Source: Pyropia yezoensis (taxonomy: Eukaryota > Rhodophyta > Bangiophyceae > Bangiales > Bangiaceae). From it: a stretch of DNA of 64,000 nucleotides. The notes beneath the pieces were generated by a model that worked only from the letters and a program-made list of their open reading frames with translations, was not told where the DNA came from and did not search any database. Positions 23,169-60,985 of this stretch are shown piece after piece. The stretch spans positions 32,960,894-33,024,893 of the forward strand of contig CM020618.1 in the NCBI GenBank assembly GCA_009829735.1, given 5' to 3'. The stretch's first letter is position 1. Each line of letters starts with the position of its first letter. Position numbers and translations under genes: made by a program.

Positions 23169-24878
23169 TTGATGCATCCCTGGTCACCGCGGGGGACGGT
23201 GCCCAACCCCGGCGTTCTCCCTACGGGTGAAGCAGACCTGGGTGTGACATCCGGTAGCGGACTGGAGTCCACAGGGGGCCAAGCACCACCTGCTCCCGTT
23301 CCTCCGGCTGTTCCTCCTGTGGGAGCCACCCCGGGGTCAACGGCGTTTGAGTCCGCTCGCAGCAGACGTCTCCCTCCTGTCGGTTCTACTCCTCAACCTC
23401 CAGGGATAGCCCCTGGTGTGTTTACTCCTGGACCCACACATGGCAGCTGGGTGTATACACCTCTTCCTGTGGGCACTAGCGATGCCAGAGGCACCGTTGT
23501 GACGGGTTCTACGGGTCTCCCTGAGACCTCGACTCCTGGGACCGGCCAAGCTTTGCCTCCCCTTGCATCCTATGGGGCGGGGAGCCCCAAGGCCGGTAAC
23601 CGGAGCAGCCGAAGGCGTCGGCGTCATTGCCGTCGCTCTAGCACCAGCGAGACCAGTTCCTCCAGCTCTGAGGAGGGATATGATTGGGATGCATCTCCCG
23701 GTCCCATCCGGCGCAGGCTAGTCGAGTTTGACTTCCCTGCCCACCAAGTGGGAGATGCCACCCTGAACAAGGTCACGTATTGGGGTAACTACCGGCTGGA
23801 GAACCAAGACCAAGGTTACACCCGGAAGATGGCCAAGAAGATGGCGTCCCTGAACCGGCGAATGCAGCCGAGCTTCGGGGGACATCCTAAGTTTTCCGGG
23901 AAGAGACCGGCGCTCATCTTTGCCTTCCTGCGCCGGTTTGTCAAGGCATGCAATGACAACGATGTGTCCGAGGGCAAGGCTCTCTACCTCCTGGTTAACT
24001 TCATGACCGGAGAAGCGGAACAGCGGTTTGCACAGGTTCTACCAGACTCTGCCGGACACATTGTCGGACGTACCGTCGCGAGTTATCCGGAGGCGGTCAA
24101 CTGGCTCCTGTCCAACTACGCTGACGCGGACTTTCTGCGTAAAGCAGTCGGCAGGCTGAACCGGGCAGCCATGGAAAGACAAGAGACTCCCGAGGCGTTC
24201 GCCCGTCGTGTCCGGGAGATGAGCGATGCTTGTGGCAACATTTACCCTGAGGACAGGCTCAAGATGATCTTCTCGGAAGGGCTTCCTGAATATCTTCAAG
24301 TGGATGCGGAGAACTACAACCAGAAACATCAAGAACATACCTTCCAGCAGTTGATGGCCTACACCCAGGGCAAGTACCGGCAAGCCAGGGCCCTCCAAGC
24401 TCCCATGGTATCAACTCCCAAGCCGTTGTCGCGAGTTCGACCCGGACCCGACAAGTATAAGGGAGGTGATAGCCCTGGACCGGTACTCGCAGTTGGCGAG
24501 GCCTCACCCATGGGGTCAGGGGACAAGTGGGGCGGCTTCGTTTCCAAGGAGCAACCATCCCTGGTCGCCCCCAAGCAAGTCAAGAACCAGCGGTTCCGGT
24601 CTTGTTGGCTGTGCCAGAAGGAGGATCACATGTCCTACCAGTGCCCGACCATTCCCAAGGACCTCCAGGAGAAACTCAAGCGTCAAGGACTGGTGTTTGC
24701 AAAGGCGGTCAACTGGGCTGACCGGCGGGCACCCTCCAAGATGGACAAGGCACAGGTACATGCAATCCGAGTGGCAACCTTACAGAGCATCACGGAGGCT
24801 CTGGCAAGGGAAGCTCCTACGGACTTCGACCTGGAGACCGAAACCTCTAAGGACTCCTCGGACCCGGGAAACGAGTAG
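23169..24878 (+). CDS. gag: E2 gag
   Basis: About 569 codons from ATG 23169. The protein has a Pro/Gly/Thr-rich N-terminus, a Ser-rich acidic patch (23640-23700), and a capsid-like region with F-L-R-R-F-V-K-A-C-N-D-N-D-V-S-E near 23930-23980. A C-x2-C-x4-H-x4-C knuckle (C-W-L-C...H-M-S-Y-Q-C) lies near 24604-24645. A better-placed ATG at 23117 is in another frame and joins this one only if the G run at about 23192-23196 holds an indel, so the true start is uncertain. The stop TAG 24876-24878 overlaps a -1 frameshift site. Contig B repeats the 3' part at 46782-47607. Confidence 0.82.
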   Translation: MMHPWSPRGTVPNPGVLPTGEADLGVTSGSGLESTGGQAPPAPVPPAVPPVGATPGSTAFESARSRRLPPVGSTPQPPGIAPGVFTPGPTHGSWVYTPLPVGTSDARGTVVTGSTGLPETSTPGTGQALPPLASYGAGSPKAGNRSSRRRRRHCRRSSTSETSSSSSEEGYDWDASPGPIRRRLVEFDFPAHQVGDATLNKVTYWGNYRLENQDQGYTRKMAKKMASLNRRMQPSFGGHPKFSGKRPALIFAFLRRFVKACNDNDVSEGKALYLLVNFMTGEAEQRFAQVLPDSAGHIVGRTVASYPEAVNWLLSNYADADFLRKAVGRLNRAAMERQETPEAFARRVREMSDACGNIYPEDRLKMIFSEGLPEYLQVDAENYNQKHQEHTFQQLMAYTQGKYRQARALQAPMVSTPKPLSRVRPGPDKYKGGDSPGPVLAVGEASPMGSGDKWGGFVSKEQPSLVAPKQVKNQRFRSCWLCQKEDHMSYQCPTIPKDLQEKLKRQGLVFAKAVNWADRRAPSKMDKAQVHAIRVATLQSITEALAREAPTDFDLETETSKDSSDPGNE

Positions 24879-24905
24879 GGCAGGCGCTCTCCCCAAGCGT
24901 CTTCC
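24866..24905 (+). promoter_or_regulatory. E2 gag-pol -1 frameshift signal
   Basis: The gag frame reads CCG GGA AAC GAG TAG, so G-GGA-AAC (24866-24872) is again in X-XXY-YYZ register, one codon before the stop. The -1 frame is open from here through the protease. A weaker stem follows (GGCGCT with AGCGTC, one G-T pair, about 10 nt downstream). The heptamer is the same as in E1; the structure is less convincing. Confidence 0.6.
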
Positions 24906-25705
24906 CGAATCTCCAACGGCAGGGTACTTCTACCCGTTCTCCCCTTGCGTACCGGGAGAAAGGACGGCAGTTACCTGCTCAACCGGTAGCCGCCTGGACA
25001 CCCTGTTTGTTCAAGGGGACATTGCTCGTCCTGCGTAAAGAAAACCTCAAGATTAATGCTCGTATGCATGTGGGGGATAGCCTCCCCCAAGCTGTAACGC
25101 CGGTGGTTGACACGGGAGCCGGACCAAGCGTCATCACTGAGAACCTGTTACCTCCGGGCTGGCGTCGACATGCCTGGAGAGCGCCTACCCGGACCCATAT
25201 CGTCGACGCTTCGGGTCAAACCCTACGACCGCTTGGCCGTCTTCCTGTCGCCATCTATGTCAACAATGAACCAATGCTTTTTCCCTTTCTAGTAGTCAAG
25301 ACCCTATCAGTCCCCCTCATCCTAGGCTGGGACTTCCAGAAGCAGCATGTCAAGAGCATCCTACCCGGAGAAGGGAAGGTCCAGTTCAACCATGGGTTTG
25401 TGTCACTGGTATTGGAACATCTGGACGCCAAGGTTCGTGTAGCCAAGAGCAAGAGGGAACGCATCCCACCCTCTACCTTGACTCTCTTCAAACCGGTGCT
25501 CCTACCTCCTCGCTCGGAGACCAAGGTTCAAGTAACGACCCGGATTGCAGGTCAATGCCTGATCTACGGACGTAAGGAATTTCTGGCAAAACACCGGTTC
25601 TACTTGGCCCACGGACATCACAAGAAGGTAGAAAGGCACACCCCGTTCTCGGTGCTAATCGTCAACGTGAGCCGGAAGCCAGTAACCCTCGCCAAGGGCA
25701 CCTGA
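24872..25705 (+). CDS. pol: E2 pol, first segment: aspartic protease
   Basis: Read in the -1 frame after gag. The active site V-V-D-T-G-A-G-P-S-V-I is near 25104-25136, followed by a flap and L-I-L-G-W-D-F near 25317-25337, as in retroelement proteases. The frame ends at TGA 25703-25705. After that stop the same frame stays open and enters the reverse transcriptase segment, whose first ATG is 25745. Contig B shows the same TGA in its copy (45954-45956), so it is not a random read error. E1 has a sense codon at this point. Confidence 0.8.
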   Translation, partial: RVGQALSPSVFPNLQRQGTSTRSPLAYREKGRQLPAQPVAAWTPCLFKGTLLVLRKENLKINARMHVGDSLPQAVTPVVDTGAGPSVITENLLPPGWRRHAWRAPTRTHIVDASGQTLRPLGRLPVAIYVNNEPMLFPFLVVKTLSVPLILGWDFQKQHVKSILPGEGKVQFNHGFVSLVLEHLDAKVRVAKSKRERIPPSTLTLFKPVLLPPRSETKVQVTTRIAGQCLIYGRKEFLAKHRFYLAHGHHKKVERHTPFSVLIVNVSRKPVTLAKGT

Positions 25706-25744
25706 GTTGGTACAGCAGAGCCTTACCGGGGATCCGCCCGTGCT

Positions 25745-26636
25745 ATGAGCAAGGAAGACCTCCTGAACCTGCAACAAGAACTGGCATCCAACTTGACGGC
25801 CTTAGACGTACCTCCGAAGCAAGAGCAGGCTGGCAGCGCTACTCCGAAACCCGAACAAGTACCACCCGGGATGCCGAAGGTCAAGCAAGAAAATGTCCCT
25901 CCCGACTTGAAGGAGGCACTGGAGAAGCTTCTCCAGGAATATCGGCACCTGTGGTCGGGAGAGCTGGGCAAGATGGACGCCACTCTACACCGGATTCAAC
26001 TCAAGCCGGAAGCTAAACCAGTGCACATGCAACCATATCGGGCTGGACCTCATCGCCGGGATGAGATTGAGAAGCAGGTTAACAAGATGCTCAAGATGGG
26101 ATGTTATCGAGCCGTCTGATGGCGAGTGGCTTTCCCGGTGGTAGTCGTCCCGAAAACCGGCGGTCACTTCCGTTTCTGCGTTGACTACCGGCGCCTGAAC
26201 GAGATGACAGTCAAGGACGTATACCCGATACCCCGGATGGATGATTGCCTCGACTTTCTGGTGATGCCACCCTCTTCTCGACGCTGGATTGTAATGCCGG
26301 TTCCTGGCAGATCCCTCTCGCTGACGAGGACAAGGACAAGACCACCTTCACGTGCCACCTGGGACTATTCCGGTGCAAGCGTCTTCCTTTTGGTCTCACA
26401 ATGCTCCGGCCACCTTCCAAAAGCCCATCGACATCATCCTGTCCGGGCTAGGGTGGAGAACATGTTTGGTCTACCTGGACGACATTATGGTTTTCTCCAA
26501 GACCCCAGCGGAACACCTGGAGAACCTTCGGGAGGTCCTGGCCTCCTGTCCAAGGCTGGAGTTACCCTCAAAGGCCGAGAAGTGCCACCTGTTTGAGACT
26601 GAGGTGGAGTATCTGGGGCATGTGCTGAGTCCGGGG
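25745..26636 (+). pseudogene. pol: E2 reverse transcriptase, start of domain (frameshifted contig end)
   Basis: Same gene as 44190-45914 of contig B. From ATG 25745 it reads well to about 26095. Then several one-base indels scatter the domain over three frames: F-C-V-D-Y-R-R-L-N at 26172, L-D-C-N-A-G at 26286, Y-L-D-D-I at 26470. The contig B copy is free of these, so they are probably errors at the contig end. Confidence 0.8.
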
Positions 26637-27136
26637 NNNNNNNNNNNNNNNNNNNNNNNNNNNNNNNNNNNNNNNNNNNNNNNNNNNNNNNNNNNNNNNN
26701 NNNNNNNNNNNNNNNNNNNNNNNNNNNNNNNNNNNNNNNNNNNNNNNNNNNNNNNNNNNNNNNNNNNNNNNNNNNNNNNNNNNNNNNNNNNNNNNNNNNN
26801 NNNNNNNNNNNNNNNNNNNNNNNNNNNNNNNNNNNNNNNNNNNNNNNNNNNNNNNNNNNNNNNNNNNNNNNNNNNNNNNNNNNNNNNNNNNNNNNNNNNN
26901 NNNNNNNNNNNNNNNNNNNNNNNNNNNNNNNNNNNNNNNNNNNNNNNNNNNNNNNNNNNNNNNNNNNNNNNNNNNNNNNNNNNNNNNNNNNNNNNNNNNN
27001 NNNNNNNNNNNNNNNNNNNNNNNNNNNNNNNNNNNNNNNNNNNNNNNNNNNNNNNNNNNNNNNNNNNNNNNNNNNNNNNNNNNNNNNNNNNNNNNNNNNN
27101 NNNNNNNNNNNNNNNNNNNNNNNNNNNNNNNNNNNN
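26637..27136. other. assembly gap, 500 N
   Basis: A run of exactly 500 N, a placeholder length. In the corrected order no sequence is missing here. Confidence 0.99.
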
Positions 27137-27728
27137 TAAGCAGCTGTGGCGTTACACTCAGCAGCAACCGCATGCGCATGTCCCTCGCAAGAATATCGTG
27201 TTTGAGGAGTACCTTGCCTGGTCGAAAAAAAAATCATGAGCTGCTCTGGTTATTGACTTGCCTTGACTTGAGGGAGTTGTCAAGTGTGAATTCTGGCTCG
27301 GATTGTCGGTGCGGCCTGCGCGGCGGCCCCGTGCACGGCTGGGGGGGGTGCCGCTGCTTTCAAGGGCCCCCGCGCCCAGCTGCAGCGCGCCCCCTCGCCA
27401 CTGCCCTGGTGACACCGCCGTTGCCCATCCCCTGCCGAGCTGGCGGCGGCAGGGTGGGGGGGGTAGCCGCCCGGACGCTGGTGGCGGCTGACCAGCCCAT
27501 CGTCGCCGTGCCACTCACGCCGCCGGGGTGGCGGTCGTTTGCCGGAGGCGGCCGCCGCGCTAGCCGCGATGGCGGCGGCAGCGGCCACGGCGGCGGATGG
27601 CGGCGACCGCGGCGGCGGCGGCACCACGACGGTCAGCGGGGGCGGGGGCACTCGCCGCCGCTCTTGCCCCTCTCCACCACCCCCACCTCCGATGGTGGCG
27701 GCCGTGGCCGTAAGCCTCATGGGCGTGC

Positions 27729-30371
27729 TCAAGGGGGTTCGGGCGACGGCGGCGACGGCGGCGGCACGCTGGATACGGCTACCAGCAAAGCCGGTACTGG
27801 CGGTGCTCCTGACGGACCCGTCCCCGGTGGAGGCGGGGGGGTCTGAAAGAAAAAAGTCGTTAGGGCAAGGCAGCGAATGGTCAACGTGGAGGTGGAGGCG
27901 GTGGCGGCGGTCGGAAGGGGGGGGGGGGGGGCGGGGGAGGCCGTAGCGGCCCTCAGCGCCGACACACCCCGCAAGAGCAACATGCATGGGCTGTTCACCC
28001 TCCGAGAGTCCCGCCACCTATGGGGGCGCCGCCCCGCGAGCTGGGGGCCTGGCGCGACGCGCGGCCGACCCCGCAACGCGTCCTGAGGGCGCGCGCTTGG
28101 CGCATGTCTGCATGTCCTGTACATATGTCACTGTACCGTACTGCACATACCTACATACCTACCCTCTGCCAAGCCGCAGCCCCCAGCCGCCCCTCCCGCC
28201 GCTCATCGGCCACCGCCACCCCGCCCTCGCCATCCGTTAGGGGCCCGCACCGCCGGGTGCGGGCGTCCGCAGCCCCCGCCGGCAGGGGCGGCGGCGACAG
28301 CAGTGTCGGCGGCATGGGCGGCGGCGGCGACTGTGGCAGGCCGCCGCTGCCGCCGCCGACGCTGCTGTCGCCGCCGCCCGCGTCGGCCGCCCCCCCCGAC
28401 ACCATGCTCATGGTGATTTCCGACAGCGGGCCATAGGTGGGGGGCCCGCCCCGCACGGCCTGTGGCGGAGGACCGCCGCCGCCGCCGCCACCCTTTTCCT
28501 TTGCACTCCACTCGGGGTGTGGCTGGCGAGCCGCGCCGGCGGGACGCCCCGCCGTTGGGGGCTCGGGGGTGTAGAGCGCGTCAACGGCGGCAAGGATGTT
28601 CTCCTCCATCGCCACCTCGGCTTCAGCTGCGGCCAGAGACCACGGCGACGGCGCACCGCCGCCGCCGCCGTCGACGCCGCCGCCGCCGCCGCTGCTGCTG
28701 GTATCGGGATGGGCGGCCCAGCCTTCCCACGCGGGCGCATTGTCCAGCGTCGCCACCCCGCGGGCCGCGGCGCCGCCCGCACTCGCCTCGCGGCCGTCAC
28801 GGGGGCCACTGCGAAACGGGCGGGCAAGGGCGGCAACGACACTGCAGAAGCCGCCGCCGCCGCCACCGCCGCCGCCACCGCCACCGCCGCCCGCCACCGC
28901 CGCTGCCCGCTGCCACTGCCGCTGCCACTGCCGCCGCTGCTGCCGTAGCCGCAGGCGCCCCGCCCCGGCGCCGACGCGGGCCCGTCGGGCGCTCGCCCCC
29001 CCCCGGCCGGCGGCCCGCAGCAGCACGGCGGCTGGCAATGGTGCGGGCACCAGCGGCGGCGGCCGCCACCATCACCACCACCCCCGCGACGGCCACGCCG
29101 ACAATGGCGCCCGTGGACAGCCCCCCCCCCTCCTCCCCCCCGCCGTAGTCATTGCCGCCAGCAGCGCCGCCCGCATCGGCGGCGGCCGACGCGGGCGGGG
29201 GGACCGCGGCGGCGCGGCAGGCGCGGCCGCGGCGGCCACGCACGGCGCGGTCGGCAGCGTCGGGGAACGGAGGGCCACCCAGGTGGCGCCCCCCGGCGGG
29301 GCCCCCCCCGGCGTCGTGCCCGCTGCCTCGGGGAGCGCCACGTGCGCGGAGCCGGTGGGGCTGACGCGCGAAAGGCGGCGGCCACCGCCGCCGACACGTC
29401 GGCGGCGGGCGGCCCAGTCGGGGGTGGCGGTGGCGTTGGCGGCGGCGGCGGCGGCGGCATCCGCCGGCCCCTCCCCCCCCCCCAGGCGGTCGCCCACGCG
29501 CGTGACACGCGCGCGGCGGTCCAGGTGGCGGCCGACGACACGATGGGATTGCTGGCGGCGGCGGCTGCCACGGGGTCGGTCCACGTCAGCCGCACCGCCG
29601 CGGCGGGGGTGTCGGGGTTAACGTCCCGGTGGCCAGTGAGGCCAAGCCGCCCGCCCGGCGGGATGGCAAGCGTCACCACGTGGTTGGGCGCCTCCCCGAC
29701 GGGCGGCTCGTACTGCAGCGCGCCATCCTGTGGGAGGTGGGATGGGGTGGGAGAGAAAAACGGCAAGGCAGCAGGAGGGCCGAGGTAGGGAAGCGGGCGG
29801 TGGCGGAGGCGGAGCGCCGGCCAAGCCATGGCTCGGGGTCGTCAGTCGACAGCGCCGCTGCTACGACGGCGCGCCCAGTCTACCTCCCGCCGCCCCACTC
29901 TTGGGCAGACCGGGATTCTCAGCCGGCAATCCCCGCCCCACTCACCAACACTCTCCCCCAACACGTGCAGCTTCCCCCCCCCCCCCCCGCCCCCTGTATA
30001 CCACCTCCATCTCCCCCCTTCCTCTTCCACGCGGCACGCACCACAAATACGCGGAGGGAGGTGTAGAAAAACTGGATCTCCACCGTCGCGTTGCACGCCG
30101 CCGCGGCCGCCGCCCGCGGCGCTGCCGCCACCACCGCCGCCGCCGCTGCCGCCGCTGTCGTCAATGCAACTCGTGCGGCCGCGGGACGCGCATGCACCCG
30201 CCGGCAACGCCGGGAGCACCCCAGCGAGCGGGGTGGGAGGTGGTCGCTGGGGAGCAGCGACAGGGGGCAAGCCCCTCTCGGGGAATGGGCGGTGGTGGTG
30301 GTGGTGGCGGTGACGGTGGCGGCGGAGGTGCCGGTGGTGGGCGCGCCCGTCCCCATCGTGGGTGACCTCAT
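27729..30371 (-). CDS. single-pass membrane protein, three exons (B copy)
   Basis: Same gene as 57363-60002 in contig C, described there. Exons by my splice calls: 30371-30042, 29727-28163 and 27842-27729. In this copy the G run near 28270 has five bases, which keeps the frame open through A-A-W-Q-R to the second donor; contig C has four and stops early. Conversely a C run near 29470-29480 breaks exon 2 here and not in C. Neither copy is fully open alone, but the damage is at different homopolymers. Confidence 0.5.
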
Positions 30372-32755
30372 GGTGCTCCGGGGGGGGGGGGGGGGCAAAG
30401 AGCGGACGGGCTGTCACAGAGACCAGCGGCCGCCGCCGGCGGGGTGACAGAAGGCTGCTATCAAGGGCAGCGCGACGAGGCAACTGCCGGCGCCGGGGGG
30501 GAGGGAAAGGGGGGTGCAGCGCAAAGCGTCAAGAGGTCTGGCAGCAGGGAACGGAAAGGGGCAAGCGGGAGGGGGCCCTTGCCGTGTCTCCCCGCGGTGG
30601 CCAGACAGAACACGCCGGGGCGGCGCAGGTGGAGCGGCGCGCTCATGGCGGCCACGGCAGGGGCTGTCTCGCGGTGGTGGCGACGGCCGCCCCAATCTCT
30701 GGGGGCGGGAGGAAGGGGCAGGGGCGGCCGCACCCGCACCGAGCGGGCGCGGTGGCCGCGTCGTCTTCCTCACCCCCCCTCGGCCCCCCCCCCCACGCAT
30801 GCGCCCACGTCCGCCAGTGGCCCCTCCCCGCCGGGTCGGCGGCGGTCACGCGGCGGCCGACGCGGCCGACGCGGGAGCAGCAGGGGGCCGGGGCGGGGTG
30901 TGTGGAGAGAGCGTGGCGTGCTACGGCGCGACACCGCCCCCGCGCTCTCCCCTGCTCTCCCCCTCCGCTCCCCCCCCATATCCTCCGCCTCTTTCCCTGC
31001 CACCAGCACCGCCACCCCCCCTTCCTCCCCACCCTCCCCCCCCCCCCCCAACCCCGCAGCATCCCGAGGGGCTGACCGGCCACCGCCGCCCTTTTGCCAA
31101 CGGTGCAGCCGTCGGATGAACGGGGGCAGGGCACCGGCGGTGGGGGTGCACACGTCAGGGTGGCGGTGGCGGTGGTGGGGGCGGCCGGCTGCACAGGCGC
31201 TGCACTCCCCCCCCCCCCCCCGCACGGCCCCCTGCTGGTAGGGCCACCGCCGGCCTCGAGGGACGGCCTGCAGCGACGGGCAGCCAGCGCACGGGGTGCA
31301 CGCGGTGGCCGCGCGCGCGTGATCCCGCTGCAGAGCTCTGCTACCGAGATAGACCTTCTAGCCATAGTAGAGGTGGGAAGGAGGGGCACGTGACGAGGGG
31401 GAGGCACGATGTTGGGTGGGGACAGAGCACCGGAGGGGGGGGGATAGCTAGAAGGGGAGGACGTCCCCCGCCGTCGGCCACCTGCCGCAAAGGCTGACGA
31501 GGCGACGCTGCCGACGGGGCGTCGCGGAGCCGGCCGCCACCGCCAGCGACGACGCCGCCGACGCGGCCCGCCACGTCGACTTGGCTGGAGGGGTCCGTCG
31601 CGGCTGCCCGAGCTGCTCTCTCGTGGGCCACCCGATCGTGGGATGAAAGCTACGGGGGGGGGAGATTTCAGAGCCCCGCAATCCCAAGCCCTTGATAGCA
31701 ACGAATGTATTTGTTGTATAGTTGTCTGACTTGTCTGTATTTGATGGGCGGCTGAGGACAGCCTGCTCACGCGACACATTTGCCAGGTGTTGATTGGGCA
31801 GGGTGTCGCACAATGAACGAGATGATGGTCTTAGCGGCACCCCATTGGCCGATGTGTACACAGGGCTGTTGGGAGATAAGGCCTGTGACGCCACACGCAC
31901 CGCATCCCCCCGCACCAACATGTGACAGTTTGCCTCTGGTTATTCTTGCCGCCGTCGGCTCGGCGCCCGCGTGCGCGTGCGCGCGCCCTCGGCGCGACGG
32001 CGGGCGCACGTCGCCGCCTCGAAAGTGGTGTCAAGTGCTGTCACCTATTTTGAGGCGACGACGACCGGCGGGTCGTCCCGCGAGCTCTTTGCAGCCCCCC
32101 CCCCCCCCCCCAACAACGCAACGCGCCGATAAGCGATTGTTCCGGCCGCCCGTCGCCCCTACAGTGCCCAGCCAGGCCCCCCCCCCCGACAGGCATTGGC
32201 GGGGGAGTTGTGGGGGTGATGAGTCGGCGCGCCGCTGGTCGCAACGCGGCCTTGCCCTGCACGCGCGTGTGCGACGTCGCGTCTTCCTCCCCAGGCAGGG
32301 CAACACCGTTGCGGGGGGGGGTCTTGACCAGGGTCTTGACCAGGGGGGTTCCGGGGATACGCGGGCGGGCTGCTCTCTTCCCTCGCCCCGCCGCCGGCGG
32401 TTCTCCTTGCTCGTCGGCGTCTGCGCGTCTGTCCGCGACGGTGGCGGCGGAGGGGCGGGGGGGGTTGGGAGTTGGCGGTTGTCGCTGCAGCTCGTGGGCG
32501 GCTCCAAGCGCAGCCCTGCATTGACGGCGCGGCCCCACCTGGTAAGGGAGGGCGCGTCCTTTCCCGCGGCTACCCGTCTTCCGACGACGCCCCCCCCCCC
32601 CCCCCCCCCTTGCTCCCTGCCCGTTCGCGCCAGACGCGTGCCGCCGCTGCGACCTGTGGCTGTCGACGGCGCGTCGGGCGGACCCCGCCCCCGCCCCCCC
32701 GCCCGTGCCCCCCCGTCCCCCTGCCGTCGTCACGTTGCCCCACTCCCTGCCAACG
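30372..32755. other. unrecognised GC-rich interval (B copy)
   Basis: Lies between the divergent starts of the membrane-protein and phosphatase genes. It contains several C/G homopolymers (31028-31049, 31206-31222, 32096-32112, 32590-32609) and a less GC-rich patch at 31680-31950. Open frames on both strands are compositional. I see no recognised gene. Confidence 0.35.
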
Positions 32756-33801
32756 ATGGCGCCTGTCCGGGTGCTCTTCTCCGATCTGGACGGCACGCTC
32801 GCGCACTATGAGAAGGACATGAAGGAGTATGCGTCCATTGTCGGGAGCCCGCCAAGGACGGGTCTGTTACCATTGAGTACAACCAGCTGGGGGTGCAGCG
32901 GGAGTGTGCGGTGCTGGGCTCCCTCTCCTCCTCCACCGCCTACATGAGCCACGAGACGACGCGGCTGGTGCAGCACCTCCGCGCGGCGGGGGTCTTGATT
33001 GTCATCATTACGGGCGCGCGATCGTCCACCTACCTTGGCCGCCGTGCGGCGCTGCCCGCAGCGGACTATGAGTTCTTTGAGAATGGGGGACGGATGCTCG
33101 CGTCAGGGGAGCTGGTGCCCGAGTGGACCGCCACCTTTGCCGACGAGGTGGGGCCCGTCAAGGCCACCATTGAGCCAGGCGATGACGCGGCGCCGCCGCC
33201 GTCTGACCGGACGGGTAAGCTGTGGGATCTGTACCGAGAGATGAAGGAGGCGGGCTGGAAGGTGGACGCCCGCGACTACTACACCTCCTTCCGGGTGGAC
33301 GTGGCGGGCACCACCACACCCGGCCTGGATGACGCGGCGTTTGCCGGGTGGGATTTTCGCGGCCTGGCGTACAGCTTCAACCTGGGTAAGGCCGACATCT
33401 ACCCGTCGACGAGCGGAAAGGCGGCCGCCGCCAAAGAGGTCCTCCGTCGCCACGGCCTGCGGTCTGCCCACGCGGTGGCGATGTTTGACGACCACAACGA
33501 CCTGGAGCTGGGGGAGCTGGCCTCCCGCTCCTTCTTACCGGGTGTCACCCACGACAGCGTCCTCGACGCGCTGCACCGGCACGACAACTGGGAGATGACC
33601 AACAGTCGCGGTGTGCTGGGCACGGAGGAGGCGCTCGCGGCGGTGATGCGGCTCGTCGCCGCGGGGGATGCGGTGGAGGAGCCGCCGCCGGTGGATGATG
33701 CGGGGGCGGGTGCGCCAAGGAGCGCAGACGGAGAAGCGGAGGAGGACGTGCCGGTGAGCGCCGCCGTTGCCTCCTCGATTGAGATATCTAGGGAACAGTA
33801 A
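32756..33801 (+). pseudogene. HAD-type phosphatase, frameshifted copy (B)
   Basis: Same gene as 53928-54974. Here one G is missing in the run near 32842-32848, so the frame from ATG 32756 is lost after about 30 residues; the rest (from about 32890) reads normally to TAA 33799-33801. Given the overlap of B and C this is most simply a sequencing difference, not a second broken gene. Confidence 0.8.
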
Positions 33802-37205: not shown

Positions 37206-37209
37206 CTAG

Positions 37210-39296: not shown

Positions 39297-39298
39297 GT

Positions 39299-50518: not shown

Positions 50519-50522
50519 CTAG

Positions 50523-52288: not shown

Positions 52289-53421
52289 ATGATGCCACCG
52301 ACCGCTGTTCGAGTCGATATCTATTCAATGGAAATTAACACGTGGGAGCGGGGAAGCACTGTCCCCGCCCTCGCCTCCCCCTCCCGCGCTGGCAATGCCC
52401 TCCTCCCCGCCCGCCATGCCCTCCCCCAAGCGGCTGGAAGACACCGCCGCCTGGACGGCACTCGTCCACGTCACCTACCTCGCACCGCGGGCGGTGCTGG
52501 CCACCCTTGCCGCCGTTGTACTGCACATTGTGGCGGCCGGGGGGGGTGGCAGCGGGTGGCTGCCACCGCCCGTCCCCCCGGTCGCCACCGGCACCGGCGC
52601 CGGCACCGGCCGCGCCGCCGCGCCGGTGCACGCGCTGCTGCGGGCTGACAAGGACGTCCTCCCCGCAGACCCGTTCCGCACTCTGGGCGAGGTGGTGGCA
52701 GAGGTGGCCGCCCAGCTGAACGCTGCCAACGTCACCCACTGGCTCCTGCCGGGCGCATCCTTGTTGCCGCCCGAGCCCCCGTCGGTGGCGTCGCCGTCGG
52801 CCGCCGCTGCCGCCGCCGCCGCCACCGCCGCCGCCGACGCCGCGTCCTCTGCTGCCGCTGCCGCCACAGACGTGGCCGCCGCCGGGTCGTCCCCCCCGCC
52901 CCTCATTGGTCCGTCTGGGCCGCCACCAAGAGGTGCTGGACGTGGCCCTCCCCGCGGCGCACCTGCCCCGCGTGCTCGCGCGGGCGCCCGACCTGGCCGC
53001 CGTCGGCCTGGAGCTCCTCGAGACCCACCACGGTTGGGCCGTGTGCACCCGCCCCGCCGCCGGCGACGCCGCCTCTGCCGCCGCCGCCGGGCGCCGCCGC
53101 CGCGGGGGCATCCCCGACGTCCGCGCCGCGTGTGGGCTGCCGTCGGTGGCACTGTTCCCACTCACCCGCGACGCCGCCCGCCGGTGGGTGGCTGGCTGCT
53201 GTGACTGCGGTCCGACCGTCCTGTCGGCGTGTACAAAGACGCTTTGTGCATGTGTGGTGTGTGTGTGGGAGGAGGGGGAGGTGCTGCCGCTCCGGCAAGT
53301 ACGGGTGGGGGGGGTGGAGACGGGGACGGGGGGGAGTGGGGGGCTCTACGCCCCGGCGGGGGGAGGGCTCCTCGCAGGCGACGGGCCCGAGTGGGACGGC
53401 TTTTACCCGTCCAGCGTGTGA
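52289..53421 (+). pseudogene. putative type II membrane protein, LicD/fukutin-like (C copy, two frameshifts)
   Basis: Same gene as 34306-35436, where the frame is intact and the features are described. Here an extra G near 52351-52354 and an extra C near 52905-52908 put the start, middle and end in three frames. Both are single-base length differences at short runs, so error is more likely than real decay. Confidence 0.5.
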
Positions 53422-53927
53422 CGGTGGGGGGGAGTAGAAGTGGGGGATGAAGCTGGTTGCGGCTGCCTGCCTGTGGTGACTGGGACGCCCCCCTCGTGGA
53501 CGCGCTGTGAAGACGGTGCTGCGACCGCGGTGGTGAGCCGTCGCTCCACGCACGTCATGGTGGGCATGGCGCAGCGGCCACGGCGGGTCGTAAAGCGACT
53601 GGGACCAGACGCAAAGGGGGGCGGCCACCCCGTTAAGGGGCGTACGCAGGCGGAATATTCTATGCCGCCGCCAACAACCCACAGCACTTGTCTCCCTCCC
53701 ACCGCACCCTGGGGCGCCCTCCGGCCTGGACCTACACCACGCCAGCCCGTCAGACACACCAGGCGCCAGACAGCATGGCCGCAGCGCCACACCTCCCGTG
53801 GCACCTCACTGCGGGTCGGGCCGACAGCCCCCCCCCCCCCTCCGCACCCACCCACCCTGCCATCCCCAGACGCAGCAACTACCCAGACCGCGGATCATCA
53901 ACGCCAGTCGCGCTTGCGCCGGCGGCT
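53422..53927. other. intergenic, between convergent genes
   Basis: About 500 bp holding the 3' ends of the membrane-protein and phosphatase genes (B: 33802-34305). No gene seen. Confidence 0.45.
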
Positions 53928-54974
53928 TTACTGTTCCCTAGATATCTCAATCGAGGAGGCAACGGCGGCGCTCACCGGCACGTCCTCCTCCGCTTCTCCG
54001 TCTGCGCTCCTTGGCGCACCCGCCCCCGCATCATCCACCGGCGGCGGCTCCTCCACCGCATCCCCCGCGGCGACGAGCCGCATCACCGCCGCGAGCGCCT
54101 CCTCCGTGCCCAGCACACCGCGACTGTTGGTCATCTCCCAGTTGTCGTGCCGGTGCAGCGCGTCGAGGACGCTGTCGTGGGTGACACCCGGTAAGAAGGA
54201 GCGGGAGGCCAGCTCCCCCAGCTCCAGGTCGTTGTGGTCGTCAAACATCGCCACCGCGTGGGCAGACCGCAGGCCGTGGCGACGGAGGACCTCTTTGGCG
54301 GCGGCCGCCTTTCCGCTCGTCGACGGGTAGATGTCGGCCTTACCCAGGTTGAAGCTGTACGCCAGGCCGCGAAAATCCCACCCGGCAAACGCCGCGTCAT
54401 CCAGGCCGGGTGTGGTGGTGCCCGCCACGTCCACCCGGAAGGAGGTGTAGTAGTCGCGGGCGTCCACCTTCCAGCCCGCCTCCTTCATCTCTCGGTACAG
54501 ATCCCACAGCTTACCCGTCCGGTCAGACGGCGGCGGCGCCGCGTCATCGCCTGGCTCAATGGTGGCCTTGACGGGCCCCACCTCGTCGGCAAAGGTGGCG
54601 GTCCACTCGGGCACCAGCTCCCCTGACGCGAGCATCCGTCCCCCATTCTCAAAGAACTCATAGTCCGCTGCGGGCAGCGCCGCACGGCGGCCAAGGTAGG
54701 TGGACGATCGCGCGCCCGTAATGATGACAATCAAGACCCCCGCCGCGCGGAGGTGCTGCACCAGCCGCGTCGTCTCGTGGCTCATGTAGGCGGTGGAGGA
54801 GGAGAGGGAGCCCAGCACCGCACACTCCCGCTGCACCCCCAGCTGGTTGTACTCAATGGTAACAGACCCGTCCTTGGCGGGCTCCCCGACAATGGACGCA
54901 TACTCCTTCATGTCCTTCTCATAGTGCGCGAGCGTGCCGTCCAGATCGGAGAAGAGCACCCGGACAGGCGCCAT
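53928..54974 (-). CDS. HAD-superfamily phosphatase (sucrose-phosphatase/Cof-like)
   Basis: 348 residues from ATG 54974; the frame also allows a start 17 codons upstream (55025), but that extension is low complexity. Motif I is F-S-D-L-D-G-T-L (nucleophile Asp and acid/base Asp near residues 9-11). Motif II is I-I-T-G-A-R. A lysine in the F-N-L-G-K region can serve as motif III. Motif IV is F-D-D-H-N-D-L-E-L. The cap lies between motifs II and III, as in the Cof/sucrose-phosphatase type, which act on sugar phosphates and similar small substrates. The C-terminal 60 residues are acidic and Pro/Ala-rich. No targeting peptide is seen. The B copy (32756-33801) has lost one base. The substrate cannot be told from sequence. 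Confidence 0.8.
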   Translation of the reverse strand: MAPVRVLFSDLDGTLAHYEKDMKEYASIVGEPAKDGSVTIEYNQLGVQRECAVLGSLSSSTAYMSHETTRLVQHLRAAGVLIVIITGARSSTYLGRRAALPAADYEFFENGGRMLASGELVPEWTATFADEVGPVKATIEPGDDAAPPPSDRTGKLWDLYREMKEAGWKVDARDYYTSFRVDVAGTTTPGLDDAAFAGWDFRGLAYSFNLGKADIYPSTSGKAAAAKEVLRRHGLRSAHAVAMFDDHNDLELGELASRSFLPGVTHDSVLDALHRHDNWEMTNSRGVLGTEEALAAVMRLVAAGDAVEEPPPVDDAGAGAPRSADGEAEEDVPVSAAVASSIEISREQ

Positions 54975-57362
54975 CGTTGGCAGGGAGTGGGGCAACGTGA
55001 CGACGGCAGGGGGACGGGGGGGCACGGGCGGGGGGGCGGGGGCGGGGTCCGCCCGACGCGCCGTCGACAGCCACAGGTCGCAGCGGCGGCACGCGTCTGG
55101 CGCGAACGGGCAGGGAGCAACGGGGGGGGGGGGGGGGGGGCGTCGTCGGAAGACGGGTAGCCGCGGGAAAGGACGCGCCCTCCCTTACCAGGTGGGGCCG
55201 CGCCGTCAATGCAGGGCTGCGCTTGGAGCCGCCCACGAGCTGCAGCGACAACCGCCAACTCCCAACCCCCCCCGCCCCTCCGCCGCCACCGTCGCGGACA
55301 GACGCGCAGACGCCGACGAGCAAGGAGAACCGCCGGCGGCGGGGCGAGGGAAGAGAGCAGCCCGCCCGCGTATCCCCGGAACCCCCCTGGTCAAGACCCT
55401 GGTCAAGACCCCCCCCCGCAACGGTGTTGCCCTGCCTGGGGAGGAAGACGCGACGTCGCACACGCGCGTGCAGGGCAAGGCCGCGTTGCGACCAGCGGCG
55501 CGCCGACTCATCACCCCCACAACTCCCCCGCCAATGCCTGTCGGGGGGGGGGGGCCTGGCTGGGCACTGTAGGGGCGACGGGCGGCCGGAACAATCGCTT
55601 ATCGGCGGGTTGCGTTGTTGGGGGGGGGGGGGGGGGCTGCAAAGAGCTCGCGGGACGACCCGCCGGTCGTCGTCGCCTCAAAATAGGTGACAGCACTTGA
55701 CACCACTTTCGAGGCGGCGACGTGCGCCCGCCGTCGCGCCGAGGGCGCGCGCACGCGCACGCGGGCGCCGAGCCGACGGCGGCAAGAATAACCAGAGGCA
55801 AACTGTCACATGTTGGTGCGGGGGGATGCGGTGCGTGTGGCGTCACAGGCCTTATCTCCCAACAGCCCTGTGTACACATCGGCCAATGGGGTGCCGCTAA
55901 GACCATCATCTCGTTCATTGTGCGACACCCTGCCCAATCAACACCTGGCAAATGTGTCGCGTGAGCAGGCTGTCCTCAGCCGCCCATCAAATACAGACAA
56001 GTCAGACAACTATACAACAAATACATTCGTTGCTATCAAGGGCTTGGGATTGCGGGGCTCTGAAATCTCCCCCCCCCGTAGCTTTCATCCCACGATCGGG
56101 TGGCCCACGAGAGAGCAGCTCGGGCAGCCGCGACGGACCCCTCCAGCCAAGTCGACGTGGCGGGCCGCGTCGGCGGCGTCGTCGCTGGCGGTGGCGGCCG
56201 GCTCCGCGACGCCCCGTCGGCAGCGTCGCCTCGTCAGCCTTTGCGGCAGGTGGCCGACGGCGGGGGACGTCCTCCCCTTCTAGCTATCCCCCCCCCTCCG
56301 GTGCTCTGTCCCCACCCAACATCGTGCCTCCCCCTCGTCACGTGCCCCTCCTTCCCACCTCTACTATGGCTAGAAGGTCTATCTCGGTAGCAGAGCTCTG
56401 CAGCGGGATCACGCGCGCGCGGCCACCGCGTGCACCCCGTGCGCTGGCTGCCCGTCGCTGCAGGCCGTCCCTCGAGGCCGGCGGTGGCCCTACCAGCAGG
56501 GGGCCGGGCGGGGGGGGGGGGGGGGAGTGCAGCGCCTGTGCAGCCGGCCGCCCCCACCACCGCCACCGCCACCCTGACGTGTGCACCCCCACCGCCGGTG
56601 CCCTGCCCCCGTTCATCCGACGGCTGCACCGTTGGCAAAAGGGCGGCGGTGGCCGGTCAGCCCCTCGGGATGCTGCGGGGTTGGGGGGGGGGGGGGGAGG
56701 GTGGGGAGGAAGGGGGGGTGGCGGTGCTGGTGGCAGGGAAAGAGGCGGAGGATATGGGGGGGGAGCGGAGGGGGAGAGCAGGGGAGAGCGCGGGGGCGGT
56801 GTCGCGCCGTAGCACGCCACGCTCTCTCCACACACCCCGCCCCGGCCCCCTGCTGCTCCCGCGTCGGCCGCGTCGGCCGCCGCGTGACCGCCGCCGACCC
56901 GGCGGGGAGGGGCCACTGGCGGACGTGGGCGCATGCGTGGGGGGGGGGGCCGAGGGGGGGTGAGGAAGACGACGCGGCCACCGCGCCCGCTCGGTGCGGG
57001 TGCGGCCGCCCCTGCCCCTTCCTCCCGCCCCCAGAGATTGGGGCGGCCGTCGCCACCACCGCGAGACAGCCCCTGCCGTGGCCGCCATGAGCGCGCCGCT
57101 CCACCTGCGCCGCCCCGGCGTGTTCTGTCTGGCCACCGCGGGGAGACACGGCAAGGGCCCCCTCCCGCTTGCCCCTTTCCGTTCCCTGCTGCCAGACCTC
57201 TTGACGCTTTGCGCTGCACCCCCCTTTCCCTCCCCCCCGGCGCCGGCAGTTGCCTCGTCGCGCTGCCCTTGATAGCAGCCTTCTGTCACCCCGCCGGCGG
57301 CGGCCGCTGGTCTCTGTGACAGCCCGTCCGCTCTTTGCCCCCCCCCCCCCCCCCGGAGCACC
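54975..57362. other. unrecognised interval between divergent genes (C copy)
   Basis: Counterpart of 30372-32755. It contains the phosphatase promoter and perhaps upstream exons of the membrane protein. A frame opening M-A-R-R-S-I-S-V at 56366, and a good acceptor-like CTTCCTCCCGCCCCCAG ending near 57032, are the only hints of coding. G/C homopolymers at 55121-55140, 55621-55636 and 56511-56525 make frame calls unreliable. Confidence 0.35.
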
Positions 57363-57692
57363 ATGAGGTCACCCACGATGGGGACGGGCGCGCCCACCAC
57401 CGGCACCTCCGCCGCCACCGTCACCGCCACCACCACCACCACCGCCCATTCCCCGAGAGGGGCTTGCCCCCTGTCGCTGCTCCCCAGCGACCACCTCCCA
57501 CCCCGCTCGCTGGGGTGCTCCCGGCGTTGCCGGCGGGTGCATGCGCGTCCCGCGGCCGCACGAGTTGCATTGACGACAGCGGCGGCAGCGGCGGCGGCGG
57601 TGGTGGCGGCAGCGCCGCGGGCGGCGGCCGCGGCGGCGTGCAACGCGACGGTGGAGATCCAGTTTTTCTACACCTCCCTCCGCGTATTTGTG
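57363..57692 (+). CDS. single-pass membrane protein, exon 1 (start uncertain)
   Basis: ATG 57363 opens a Thr/Ala-rich stretch, then a hydrophobic Ala/Val segment that could be a signal peptide or anchor, then A-C-N-A-T-V-E-I-Q-F-F-Y-T-S. The donor after GTATTTGTG is GTGCGTGCC (57693). Phase-0 joining to 58007 gives a continuous, less biased segment. Upstream exons cannot be excluded. Confidence 0.45.
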
Positions 57693-58006
57693 GTGCGTGC
57701 CGCGTGGAAGAGGAAGGGGGGAGATGGAGGTGGTATACAGGGGGCGGGGGGGGGGGGGGGAAGCTGCACGTGTTGGGGGAGAGTGTTGGTGAGTGGGGCG
57801 GGGATTGCCGGCTGAGAATCCCGGTCTGCCCAAGAGTGGGGCGGCGGGAGGTAGACTGGGCGCGCCGTCGTAGCAGCGGCGCTGTCGACTGACGACCCCG
57901 AGCCATGGCTTGGCCGGCGCTCCGCCTCCGCCACCGCCCGCTTCCCTACCTCGGCCCTCCTGCTGCCTTGCCGTTTTTCTCTCCCACCCCATCCCACCTC
58001 CCACAG
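57693..58006 (+). other. intron 1 of the membrane-protein gene
   Basis: 314 bp, GTGCGT...CCCACAG with a pyrimidine-rich end. Phase 0. Size and phase match the amine oxidase intron. Confidence 0.6.
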
Positions 58007-59571
58007 GATGGCGCGCTGCAGTACGAGCCGCCCGTCGGGGAGGCGCCCAACCACGTGGTGACGCTTGCCATCCCGCCGGGCGGGCGGCTTGGCCTCACTG
58101 GCCACCGGGACGTTAACCCCGACACCCCCGCCGCGGCGGTGCGGCTGACGTGGACCGACCCCGTGGCAGCCGCCGCCGCCAGCAATCCCATCGTGTCGTC
58201 GGCCGCCACCTGGACCGCCGCGCGCGTGTCACGCGCGTGGGCGACCGCCTGGGGGGGGGGGGAGGGGCCGGCGGATGCCGCCGCCGCCGCCGCCGCCAAC
58301 GCCACCGCCACCCCCGACTGGGCGCCCGCCGCCGACGTGTCGGCGGCGGTGGCCGCCGCCTTTCGCGCGTCAGCCCCCACCGGCTCCGCGCACGTGGCGC
58401 TCCCCGAGGCAGCGGGCACGACGCCGGGGGGGGCCCCGCCGGGGGGCGCCACCTGGGTGGCCCTCCGTTCCCCGACGCTGCCGACCGCGCCGTGCGTGGC
58501 CGCCGCGGCCGCGCCTGCCGCGCCGCCGCGGTCCCCCCCGCCCGCGTCGGCCGCCGCCGATGCGGGCGGCGCTGCTGGCGGCAATGACTACGGCGGGGGG
58601 GAGGAGGGGGGGGGGCTGTCCACGGGCGCCATTGTCGGCGTGGCCGTCGCGGGGGTGGTGGTGATGGTGGCGGCCGCCGCCGCTGGTGCCCGCACCATTG
58701 CCAGCCGCCGTGCTGCTGCGGGCCGCCGGCCGGGGGGGGGGCGAGCGCCCGACGGGCCCGCGTCGGCGCCGGGGCGGGGCGCCTGCGGCTACGGCAGCAG
58801 CGGCGGCAGTGGCAGCGGCAGTGGCAGCGGCAGCGGCGGTGGCGGCGGCGGTGGCGGTGGCGGCGGCGGTGGCGGCGGCGGCGGCTTCTGCAGTGTCGTT
58901 GCCGCCCTTGCCCGCCCGTTTCGCAGTGGCCCCCGTGACGGCCGCGAGGCGAGTGCGGGCGGCGCCGCGGCCCGCGGGGTGGCGACGCTGGACAATGCGC
59001 CCGCGTGGGAAGGCTGGGCCGCCCATCCCGATACCAGCAGCAGCGGCGGCGGCGGCGGCGTCGACGGCGGCGGCGGCGGTGCGCCGTCGCCGTGGTCTCT
59101 GGCCGCAGCTGAAGCCGAGGTGGCGATGGAGGAGAACATCCTTGCCGCCGTTGACGCGCTCTACACCCCCGAGCCCCCAACGGCGGGGCGTCCCGCCGGC
59201 GCGGCTCGCCAGCCACACCCCGAGTGGAGTGCAAAGGAAAAGGGTGGCGGCGGCGGCGGCGGTCCTCCGCCACAGGCCGTGCGGGGCGGGCCCCCCACCT
59301 ATGGCCCGCTGTCGGAAATCACCATGAGCATGGTGTCGGGGGGGGCGGCCGACGCGGGCGGCGGCGACAGCAGCGTCGGCGGCGGCAGCGGCGGCCTGCC
59401 ACAGTCGCCGCCGCCGCCCATGCCGCCGACACTGCTGTCGCCGCCGCCCCTGCCGGCGGGGCTGCGGACGCCCGCACCCGGCGGTGCGGGCCCCTAACGG
59501 ATGGCGAGGGCGGGGTGGCGGTGGCCGATGAGCGGCGGGAGGGGCGGCTGGGGGCTGCGGCTTGGCAGAGG
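58007..59571 (+). CDS. single-pass membrane protein, exon 2
   Basis: Begins D-G-A-L-Q-Y-E-P-P-V-G-E. A probable extracellular part of about 190 residues follows, then a hydrophobic helix (G-A-I-V-G-V-A-V-A-G-V-V-V-M-V, near 58627-58680) followed by basic residues (type I topology). The long cytoplasmic tail is dominated by Gly runs, with one mixed-composition block (E-A-E-V-A-M-E-E-N-I-L-A-A-V-D). In this contig a G run near 59457-59460 has four bases and the frame stops at 59497; contig B has five and stays open to the donor AGG|GTAGGT at 59572. No family recognised; a receptor-like or cell-surface role is only a guess from topology. Confidence 0.55.
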
Positions 59572-59888
59572 GTAGGTATGTAGGTATGTGCAGTACGGTA
59601 CAGTGACATATGTACAGGACATGCAGACATGCGCCAAGCGCGCGCCCTCAGACGCGTTGCGGGGTCGGCCGCGCGTCGCGCCAGGCCCCCAGCTCGCGGG
59701 CGGCGCCCCCATAGGTGGCGGGACTCTCGGAGGGTGAACAGCCCATGCATGTTGCTCTTGCGGGGTGTGTCGGCGCTGAGGGCCGCTACGGCCTCCCCCG
59801 CCCCCCCCCCCCCCTTCCGACCGCCGCCACCGCCTCCACCTCCACGTTGACCATTCGCTGCCTTGCCCTAACGACTTTTTTCTTTCAG
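59572..59888 (+). other. intron 2 of the membrane-protein gene
   Basis: 317 bp. Donor GTAGGTATG; the end has branch-like CTAAC, then ACTTTTTTCTTTCAG, the best acceptor in the window. Phase 0 using the contig B frame. Confidence 0.55.
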
Positions 59889-60002
59889 ACCCCCCCGCCT
59901 CCACCGGGGACGGGTCCGTCAGGAGCACCGCCAGTACCGGCTTTGCTGGTAGCCGTATCCAGCGTGCCGCCGCCGTCGCCGCCGTCGCCCGAACCCCCTT
60001 GA
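59889..60002 (+). CDS. single-pass membrane protein, exon 3
   Basis: 37 codons of Pro/Val/Ser-rich tail ending E-P-P and TGA at 60000-60002. Supported by the strong acceptor and matching phase, not by homology. B copy 27729-27842. Confidence 0.45.
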   Translation, partial: TPPPPPGTGPSGAPPVPALLVAVSSVPPPSPPSPEPP

Positions 60003-60985
60003 GCACGCCCATGAGGCTTACGGCCACGGCCGCCACCATCGGAGGTGGGGGTGGTGGAGAGGGGCAAGAGCGGCGGCGAGTGCCCCCGCCCCCGCTGACC
60101 GTCGTGGTGCCGCCGCCGCCGCGGTCGCCGCCATCCGCCGCCGTGGCCGCTGCCGCCGCCATCGCGGCTAGCGCGGCGGCCGCCTCCGGCAAACGACCGC
60201 CACCCCGGCGGCGTGAGTGGCACGGCGACGATGGGCTGGTCAGCCGCCACCAGCGTCCGGGCGGCTACCCCCCCCACCCTGCCGCCGCCAGCTCGGCAGG
60301 GGATGGGCAACGGCGGGTGTCACCAGGGCAGTGGCGAGGGGGCGCGCTGCAGCTGGGCGCGGGGGGCCCTTGAAAGCAGCGGCACCCCCCCCAGCCGTGC
60401 ACGGGCCGCCGCGCAGGCCGCACCGACAATCCGAGCCAGAATTCACACTTGACAACCTCCCTCAAGTCAAGGCAAGTCAATAACCAGAGCAGCTCATGAT
60501 TTTTTTTCGACCAGGCAAGGTACTCCTCAAACACGATATTCTTGCGAGGGACATGCGCATGCGGTTGCTGCTGAGTGTAACGCCACAGCTGCTTATAATG
60601 GAGCCCATGTCCACGTCTGCCCCACCCCACTACCGGCATCGCCACACCAGCCACCGCCACTACCAGCACCATCACGACGATCACGAGCACATCCACCTCC
60701 ACCATCACCACCGCCCGCTGAGGTAGTTGGCCGGAACGACGACTGCAGCTGAACATAGGCAGCGATAGGGCGAGCGCGGAAAGCGAACCAGCGGGGGGCG
60801 CAGCCTCCGGCGAGTGCGACTACCGACGACAAGAGATTCCTGTGATATCATCGTACACCTGCTCCCGACTCCAGCGCAGACCCAGCCCATCGCCGGCGGC
60901 CCCGGTAGGTCACCCAGCGCGTCACGAGGCCCAAGGTCATCACAAAGAAGGGTGTACTTATCTCTCCACACGATGCCCACAGACG
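60003..60985. other. interval without recognised gene; end of B/C overlap
   Basis: The B/C similarity ends at 60595. On the minus strand about 60480-60620 gives a less biased peptide (Q-L-W-R-Y-T-Q-Q-Q and N-I-V-F-E-E-Y-L-A-W-S) that could be an exon, but I cannot connect it to anything. Confidence 0.3.

What the first reader, a model, noticed from the sequence alone, without database searches (positions are those of the whole stretch)
24055..60595. Contig B (27137-47607) is scaffolded in the wrong orientation; the 12.5-kb palindrome is probably an artefact
The reverse complement of B overlaps A (24055-26636 with 47607-45021) and C (39626-27137 with 48108-60595), and each overlap ends exactly at contig edges. 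Reversing B gives correct LTR pairs, two matching target duplications (ATGAT and AGGAC), an in-phase gag for E1 and an in-phase piggyBac transposase. A true palindrome would have no reason to end at the N gaps or to repair three unrelated features.
Basis: seen in the sequence. Interest (0 to 1): 0.88.

Follow-up and report, generated by a model that had tools for sequence, protein, structure and literature searches.

The report
Small contig scaffolded backwards; palindrome false
The apparent 12.5-kb palindrome in this red-alga genome is very probably an assembly mistake: a 20-kb piece that overlaps both of its neighbours was placed back to front, so DNA that exists once appears twice, once in each direction.

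Summary
Observation confirmed to the base; interpretation supported. The window is three contigs (A, B, C) split by two 500-N gaps. rc(B) dovetails with A (2.6 kb) and C (12.5 kb), with all four overlap ends on contig edges. The overlaps differ almost only by one-base homopolymer indels (B/C: 3 substitutions, 40 indels), while seven other copies of the repeat spanning the A/B overlap differ from A by 38-47 mismatches (A vs B: 0). Reversing B gives the inner Gypsy element direct LTRs (2 of 571 differences) and matching AGGAC target sites. In nine other copies A's half and rc(B)'s half abut with no base between. A 3-kb sample of the arm has no other strong match in the genome. Contig edges lie in or beside repeats. 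Scaffold lengths match the Pyropia yezoensis reference (PacBio, BioNano, Hi-C). Three more 500-N gaps, met through the same Gypsy family, also carry redundant sequence; one has an apparently chimeric contig end. Ordinary artefact, useful as a correction. Reads could not be inspected.

The parts
1..26636 (+). contig A (right end); its last 2,582 bases (24055-26636) are the same DNA as the end of B
26637..27136 (.). 500-N placeholder gap
27137..47607 (-). contig B, 20,471 bases, placed in the wrong orientation; true orientation is the reverse complement
24055..26636 (+). A/B dovetail, copy in A (entirely inside the inner Gypsy element)
   Evidence: 0 BLAST mismatches to B, against 38-47 to seven other copies
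45021..47607 (-). A/B dovetail, copy in B
27137..39626 (-). B/C dovetail, copy in B (first arm of the false palindrome)
   Evidence: a sampled 3-kb stretch has only the two window copies as strong matches
48108..60595 (+). B/C dovetail, copy in C (second arm of the false palindrome)
39627..45020 (-). the part of B not duplicated in A or C: 3' part of the inner Gypsy plus 50 bases of the outer one
47608..48107 (.). 500-N placeholder gap
22334..22904 (+). inner Gypsy, left LTR (target duplication AGGAC at 22329-22333)
   Evidence: 2 of 571 positions differ from its partner
39677..40247 (-). inner Gypsy, right LTR (target duplication AGGAC next to it)
42694..45953 (-). inner Gypsy pol ORFs: RT and RNase H (44190-45953), integrase (42694-44277) with a chromodomain match below the cut-off
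   Evidence: PF00078, PF17917, PF17921, PF00665; PF00385 21.2 bits, cut-off 25.1
13369..13907 (+). outer Gypsy, LTR in A (target duplication ATGAT at 13364-13368)
   Evidence: 6 of 539 positions differ from the B copy
38758..39296 (-). outer Gypsy, partner LTR, copy in B
48437..48976 (+). outer Gypsy, partner LTR, copy in C (ATGAT at 48977-48981)
16600..22463 (-). outer Gypsy coding region (ORF 20628-22463 with a zinc-knuckle match just below the cut-off, pol ORF 16600-20640); the inner Gypsy inserts after 22333
11929..13503 (-). piggyBac-type transposase, C-terminal part (PF13843), cut by the outer Gypsy after 13368
48977..50523 (-). other part of the same piggyBac-type element (C copy)
   Evidence: overlaps A's part by exactly 5 bases in five other copies; in phase; its own ORF 48880-49839 gave no Pfam match
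60451..62610 (+). one arm of a genuine long-inverted-repeat element (60451-66327) inside contiguous C; B's left edge lies 145 bases inside it

Best explanation
Contig B was put into the chromosome-scale scaffold in the wrong orientation and its overlaps with A and C were not merged. The real chromosome reads A, then the reverse complement of B, then C, with 2.6 kb of A and B and 12.5 kb of B and C being one and the same DNA. Shown: the exact dovetails, the error-type differences, the restored insertion footprints and the continuity of the element in other copies. Inferred: that the assembler broke at repeats (a young high-copy Gypsy and a long-inverted-repeat element), left B as a short bridging contig with uncorrected homopolymer errors, and that long-range scaffolding had too few contacts over 20 kb to orient it.
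For: Four of four contig edges are exact overlap ends. B/C overlap: 3 substitutions to 40 indels, 38 of the 40 of one base; 35 of 40 in runs of 3 or more equal bases, which hold 22% of arm bases. A vs B over the 2.6-kb overlap: 0 BLAST mismatches; A vs the same stretch of seven other copies: 38-47 mismatches in 7 of 7. Inner LTR pair and AGGAC line up only with B reversed. A's 22334-26636 and rc(B)'s 45020-39677 abut with zero bases between, same strand, in 8 non-self copies found by matching the listings, plus one. The outer Gypsy without the inner one: the two pieces overlap by exactly 5 bases in 7 of the 14 non-self copies listed to the insertion point (the other 7 have no partner in the truncated list). 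piggyBac parts overlap by exactly 5 bases in 5 copies. A 3,001-base stretch of the arm has two strong matches in the genome, both in this window. The source was homozygous thalli sequenced on PacBio RSII, scaffolded with mate pairs, BioNano and Hi-C (PMC7423979, passages). Misorientation of short contigs is a documented Hi-C failure (PMC7672694, passages).
Against: No read, mate pair, optical map or depth could be examined. MAFFT shows one block of three adjacent substitutions in the A/B overlap (26422-26424), and the B/C overlap has three substitutions. Indels are not cleanly concentrated at the two contig edges. The species was inferred from scaffold lengths, not from a name. The inner-Gypsy hit lists are truncated (28 of 1,919 and 34 of 1,802 candidates scored).
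Confidence: 0.97

Rival explanations
1. A genuine inverted segmental duplication: a real 12.5-kb palindrome with a spacer of about 8.5 kb, whose ends happen to fall at gaps.
For: The arms are present as drawn. Genuine inverted repeats do exist nearby in sequence without N gaps, e.g. 60451-62610 vs 66327-64143 and 111034-117273 vs 126648-120411 in window coordinates.
Against: Needs two inverted duplications that both end exactly on contig edges. Differences are 3 substitutions to 40 indels, whereas in the other regional repeats of 700 bases or more listed mismatches outnumber gap openings (e.g. 237:2, 245:3, 291:5, 120:1, 101:3; lowest 173:101 in a 73%-identical simple-looking array, 42:21 for the 60451 element). 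Would leave the inner Gypsy with inverted LTRs and no partner for its target site.
Confidence: 0.015
2. B is a chimeric contig joined through the high-copy inner Gypsy, not a true bridge, so that its two overlaps are real but A and C are not joined through it.
For: A contig end of this kind appears to exist on C3: up to about 22036839 it carries another Gypsy copy, after about 22037323 it matches this window's locus, and it ends at a 500-N gap. The 5.4 kb of B that neither A nor C holds lies almost wholly inside the Gypsy.
Against: B's overlap matches A's own copy of the Gypsy (0 BLAST mismatches vs 38-47 for A and 38-47 for B against seven others). The AGGAC site, the outer Gypsy and the piggyBac are each split between A and B/C at the exact insertion points. 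B is still reversed under this reading.
Confidence: 0.01
3. B is an allelic (haplotig) contig of the same locus placed beside the primary contigs.
For: The main source of false duplications in the assemblies studied in PMC9516828 was haplotype divergence (passages).
Against: The sequenced material is described as homozygous thalli, and the differences are nearly all homopolymer indels with 3 substitutions in 12.5 kb. B also bridges 5.4 kb that neither A nor C holds.
Confidence: 0.005

Closest known systems
Hi-C misorientation of short contigs (PMC7672694, passages seen)
   Same: A short contig (20 kb) in the right place and the wrong orientation between two long contigs.
   Different: The scaffolder used here is not named in the passages seen; 500 N as a program's default gap is recalled, not tested.
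False duplication with a gap between the copies (PMC9516828, passages seen)
   Same: Two copies of one locus on one scaffold separated by a gap; sequencing errors are named there as a minor source.
   Different: Here the copies are inverted because the contig was also flipped, so they mimic a palindrome.
Ty3/Gypsy LTR retrotransposons (inner and outer elements)
   Same: RT, RNase H and integrase domains, LTRs beginning TGTAG and ending CACA, 5-base target duplications; chromodomain matches below cut-off.
   Different: Nothing unusual seen; they matter here as footprints for orientation.

Membership tests
Misoriented, unmerged contig (assembly artefact) | Overlap ends coincide with contig edges in dovetail arrangement after reversal | tested here: met
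   4 of 4 contig edges exact
Misoriented, unmerged contig (assembly artefact) | Differences between copies look like sequencing error, not divergence | tested here: met
   3:40 and 0:17 mismatches to gap openings, against mismatch-rich repeats nearby
Misoriented, unmerged contig (assembly artefact) | Independent sequence features become continuous only after reversal | tested here: met
   inner LTR pair and AGGAC; A and rc(B) halves abut in 9 other copies; gag phase
Misoriented, unmerged contig (assembly artefact) | Reads join A to reversed B, single-copy depth over arms | not testable with these tools
   no reads held
True palindrome / inverted segmental duplication | Arm boundaries continuous with their flanks without gaps | tested here: not met
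   one boundary of each arm is a gap (27137 for the first, 48108 for the second)
True palindrome / inverted segmental duplication | Arm divergence by substitutions, as in genuine repeats nearby | tested here: not met
Ty3/Gypsy element (inner) | RT, RNase H, integrase in that order, direct LTRs, 5-base target duplication | tested here: met
   direct LTRs only with B reversed
piggyBac-type transposon | DDE_Tnp_1_7 transposase | tested here: met
   PF13843 over cut-off at 11929-13503 (-)
piggyBac-type transposon | TTAA target sites and terminal inverted repeats (recalled features) | not tested
   element ends were not mapped

The most novel reading that the evidence does not exclude
The fault is systematic: the young high-copy Gypsy family breaks this reference assembly at many of its copies, leaving unmerged overlaps, flipped short contigs and chimeric contig ends, so that some duplications and inversions read from the nori reference are artefacts. 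Five of the five 500-N gaps seen here carry redundant sequence, but they were met through this family or this locus and are not a random sample.
Probability: 0.4. Interest if true: 0.3.

Novelty: not a real feature. Interest (0 to 1): 0.12.

Why it matters
The false palindrome doubles about 15 kb of a crop seaweed's reference chromosome and would be read as an inverted duplication. Reversing B and counting each overlap once removes 16,072 bases including Ns. The same kind of error at other copies of this Gypsy family could affect counts of duplicated genes and apparent synteny breaks. It bears on no long-standing open question in biology.

Tried and rejected
True palindrome: rejected on contig-edge coincidence, difference spectrum and broken insertion footprints. 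Haplotig: rejected on source material and spectrum. Chimeric B: considered because such a contig end appears to exist on C3; rejected by copy-specific substitutions, though only the part of B that overlaps A could be tested that way.

A possible host gene in the arms: window:53928-55184 (-) gave a weak haloacid-dehalogenase match (PF08282, 29.8 bits, no single stretch passing), but the six-frame genome search with that family listed four places and not this one, so no falsely duplicated gene is claimed. The other nine arm ORFs sent to Pfam, chosen from the list, gave nothing. No RNA family reached its threshold and no tRNA was found in the window.

The search with C's 11.6-kb arm did not list its own locus or B's, so it cannot show that the arm is single-copy; a 3-kb part was searched instead. 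That search gave two strong matches, and 29 others of at most 209 bases and at most 89% identity.

On C3 the contig after the gap (from 22043675) begins inside a Gypsy copy identical to the one before the gap over the 2,325 bases first compared, with the first MAFFT substitution at 22036839 and 8 mismatches and 4 gap openings in 4,695 columns overall. But the flanks (CGCAC left, TATTT right) do not match as a target duplication, so I do not claim that these two contigs are continuous.

Papers: searches gave listings; passages of PMC7423979, PMC7672694, PMC8081667 and PMC9516828 were seen through 'find', the third without use here. I did not search specifically for a published report of this misorientation.
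Full report
What is there. The window has two runs of exactly 500 N, at 26637-27136 and 47608-48107, and there are no others within 100 kb on either side (264,000 bases read). It is therefore the end of one long contig (A), a 20,471-base contig (B) and the start of another long contig (C). Self-comparison gives two long inverted matches: 27137-39626 with 60595-48108 and 24055-26636 with 47607-45021. Each match ends on two contig edges, one at each end. This is what two dovetail overlaps look like when the middle contig has been flipped.

Source. The genome has 11 sequences; C1, C3 and C2 are 43,592,136, 29,385,039 and 34,331,705 bases. These match scaffolds S3, S1 and S2 (43.6, 29.4, 34.3 Mbp) of the Pyropia yezoensis reference (PMC7423979; passages seen through 'find'). 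The species is inferred from that match. According to those passages the DNA came from homozygous thalli, was assembled from PacBio RSII reads with HGAP, scaffolded with mate pairs, gap-filled, polished with Quiver, then scaffolded with BioNano maps and Hi-C.

Nature of the differences. Aligned with MAFFT, the B/C overlap has 43 events: 40 indels (38 of one base, two of two bases) and 3 substitutions. The A/B overlap has 15 one-base indels and one block of three adjacent substitutions; BLAST shows that overlap as 0 mismatches and 17 gap openings. Of the 40 B/C indels, 35 lie in runs of three or more equal bases, which hold 22% of the arm's bases. The LTR pairs of the two retrotransposons, which are real old duplicates, show 8 substitutions and no indels (inner pair, and outer pair A against B; the outer pair A against C has the same 6 substitutions and one indel). 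The contrast 6:55 against 8:0 gives P = 3.6e-7 by Fisher's test (events treated as independent). In the other repeats of 700 bases or more listed for the surrounding 264 kb, mismatches outnumber gap openings, for example 237:2, 245:3, 291:5, 120:1 and 101:3. The least clear are 173:101 in a 73%-identical stretch and 42:21 for a long-inverted-repeat element. The two disputed overlaps (3:40, 0:17) fall on the other side.

Same copy on both sides. The A/B overlap lies wholly inside a high-copy Gypsy element, so it might have been two different copies. It is not: A and B have 0 BLAST mismatches, while A against the same stretch of seven other copies has 38, 38, 41, 43, 44, 47 and 47, and B against them has 38-47 as well.

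Insertion footprints. With B reversed, an inner Gypsy element runs from 22334 in A to 39677 in B. It has 571-base LTRs in direct orientation (2 differences) and AGGAC on both sides. It sits inside an outer Gypsy element (LTRs 13369-13907 and 48437-48976 or, in B, 39296-38758; 6 substitutions; ATGAT on both sides), which sits inside a piggyBac-type transposase gene. The nesting order agrees with the LTR divergence. The gag-like frame of the outer element continues in phase from B (Met at 39614) into A (20628-22463, minus strand), and the piggyBac parts of C and A are in phase. Domains: RT, RNase H and integrase in both elements, and PF13843 in the piggyBac; zinc-knuckle and chromodomain matches are below their cut-offs. 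The outer LTRs, ATGAT and the piggyBac phase hold between A and C whatever B's orientation; the inner LTRs, AGGAC and gag phase need B reversed.

Other copies as rulers. The genome was searched with A's half of the inner element (22334-26636) and with rc(B)'s half (45020-39677), separately. Matching the two listings, eight non-self copies have the halves abutting with zero bases between, on one strand: C1:3540888/3540889, C1:13601098/13601099, C1:15296984/15296985, C1:30683243/30683244, C1:42955405/42955406, C2:20802582/20802583, C2:31174131/31174132, C3:13773713/13773714. A ninth is at C3:22032577/22032578. Apart from the window itself, no listed pair has the halves adjacent in opposite orientation. 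The listings are truncated (34 and 28 candidates scored), so unpaired entries are expected. For the outer element, the piece left of the inner insertion and the piece right of it overlap by exactly five bases in 7 of the 14 non-self copies listed to the insertion point; the other 7 have no partner in the truncated list. The piggyBac parts overlap by exactly five bases in five copies: C1:18347295-18347299, C3:16754842-16754846, C3:6226399-6226403, C3:19583375-19583379 and C1:25944746-25944750. One more, at C1:12735343-12735346, overlaps by four, and one at C2:5461615/5461640 does not align up to the site.

Copy number. A 3,001-base stretch of the arm (54000-57000) has two strong matches in the genome, C itself and B reversed; the other 29 listed matches are at most 209 bases long and at most 89% identical.

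Why the contigs broke there. A ends inside the inner Gypsy; C starts 51 bases past its right LTR; B's left edge (27137, equal to 60595 in C) lies 145 bases inside a genuine element with inverted arms of about 2.2 kb (60451-66327); B's right edge is again inside the inner Gypsy. The breakpoints therefore sit in or next to repeats, and B is the short bridge across the inner Gypsy. That short contigs are hard to orient by Hi-C is documented (PMC7672694, passages). That this is what happened here is inference.

Not an isolated case. Three more 500-N gaps were met, all through this Gypsy family or the arm, so they are not a random sample. C2:32307562-32308061 and C1:16513150-16513649 each lie in a Gypsy copy, and the contig after the gap repeats the contig before it in the same orientation (673 columns with 0 mismatches and 1 gap; 718 identical; only the fetched part was compared). 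On C3, the contig ending at 22043174 carries a different Gypsy copy up to about 22036839 and, after about 22037323, this window's locus: BLAST gives 0 mismatches and 52 gap openings over 5,237 columns against C (MAFFT against B shows three clusters of adjacent substitutions beside indels there). It looks chimeric, so part of this locus appears a third time on another chromosome.

Verdict. The palindrome is not a real feature of the chromosome. Reversing B and counting each overlap once removes 16,072 bases including Ns.

Noticed in passing
G000 C3:22036839-22043174 (L030), before the 500-N gap at 22043175-22043674: Apparently chimeric contig end: it switches inside a Gypsy copy from another copy to this window's locus (0 BLAST mismatches, 52 gap openings over 5,237 columns to C). 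The contig after the gap starts in a Gypsy copy identical to the one before over 2,325 bases, but flanks CGCAC and TATTT do not match.
   Followed up: partly
G000 C2:32307562-32308061 (L032) and C1:16513150-16513649 (L033): Two more 500-N gaps inside copies of the inner Gypsy, with same-orientation unmerged overlaps (673 and 718 columns compared).
   Followed up: partly
window coordinates -43637 to -14070 (C1:32917256-32946823; L014-L017): Satellite array of 88 copies of a 337-base unit, most alike at every third unit (98.65% at an offset of about 1,005 bases against 96.5% at one unit); related copies were listed on all three chromosomes (the positions printed are off by one). A centromere role is only a guess.
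   Followed up: partly
60451-66327 (runs past the window end into L019): Genuine element with inverted arms of about 2.2 kb (96.4%); relatives with paired inverted arms at C2:27225582/27229523, C1:12776031/12779574, C1:13502703/13511986 and C1:18027976/18031729.
   Followed up: partly
103914-132258 in window coordinates (C1:33064807-33093151; L022-L025): Cluster of direct and inverted duplications of 3-6 kb at about 95-97% identity in sequence without N gaps.
   Followed up: no
near 15586: This outer Gypsy copy lacks about 361 bases that the 14 other listed copies have, with 16 bases of repeat at the joint, as after a small deletion.
   Followed up: no
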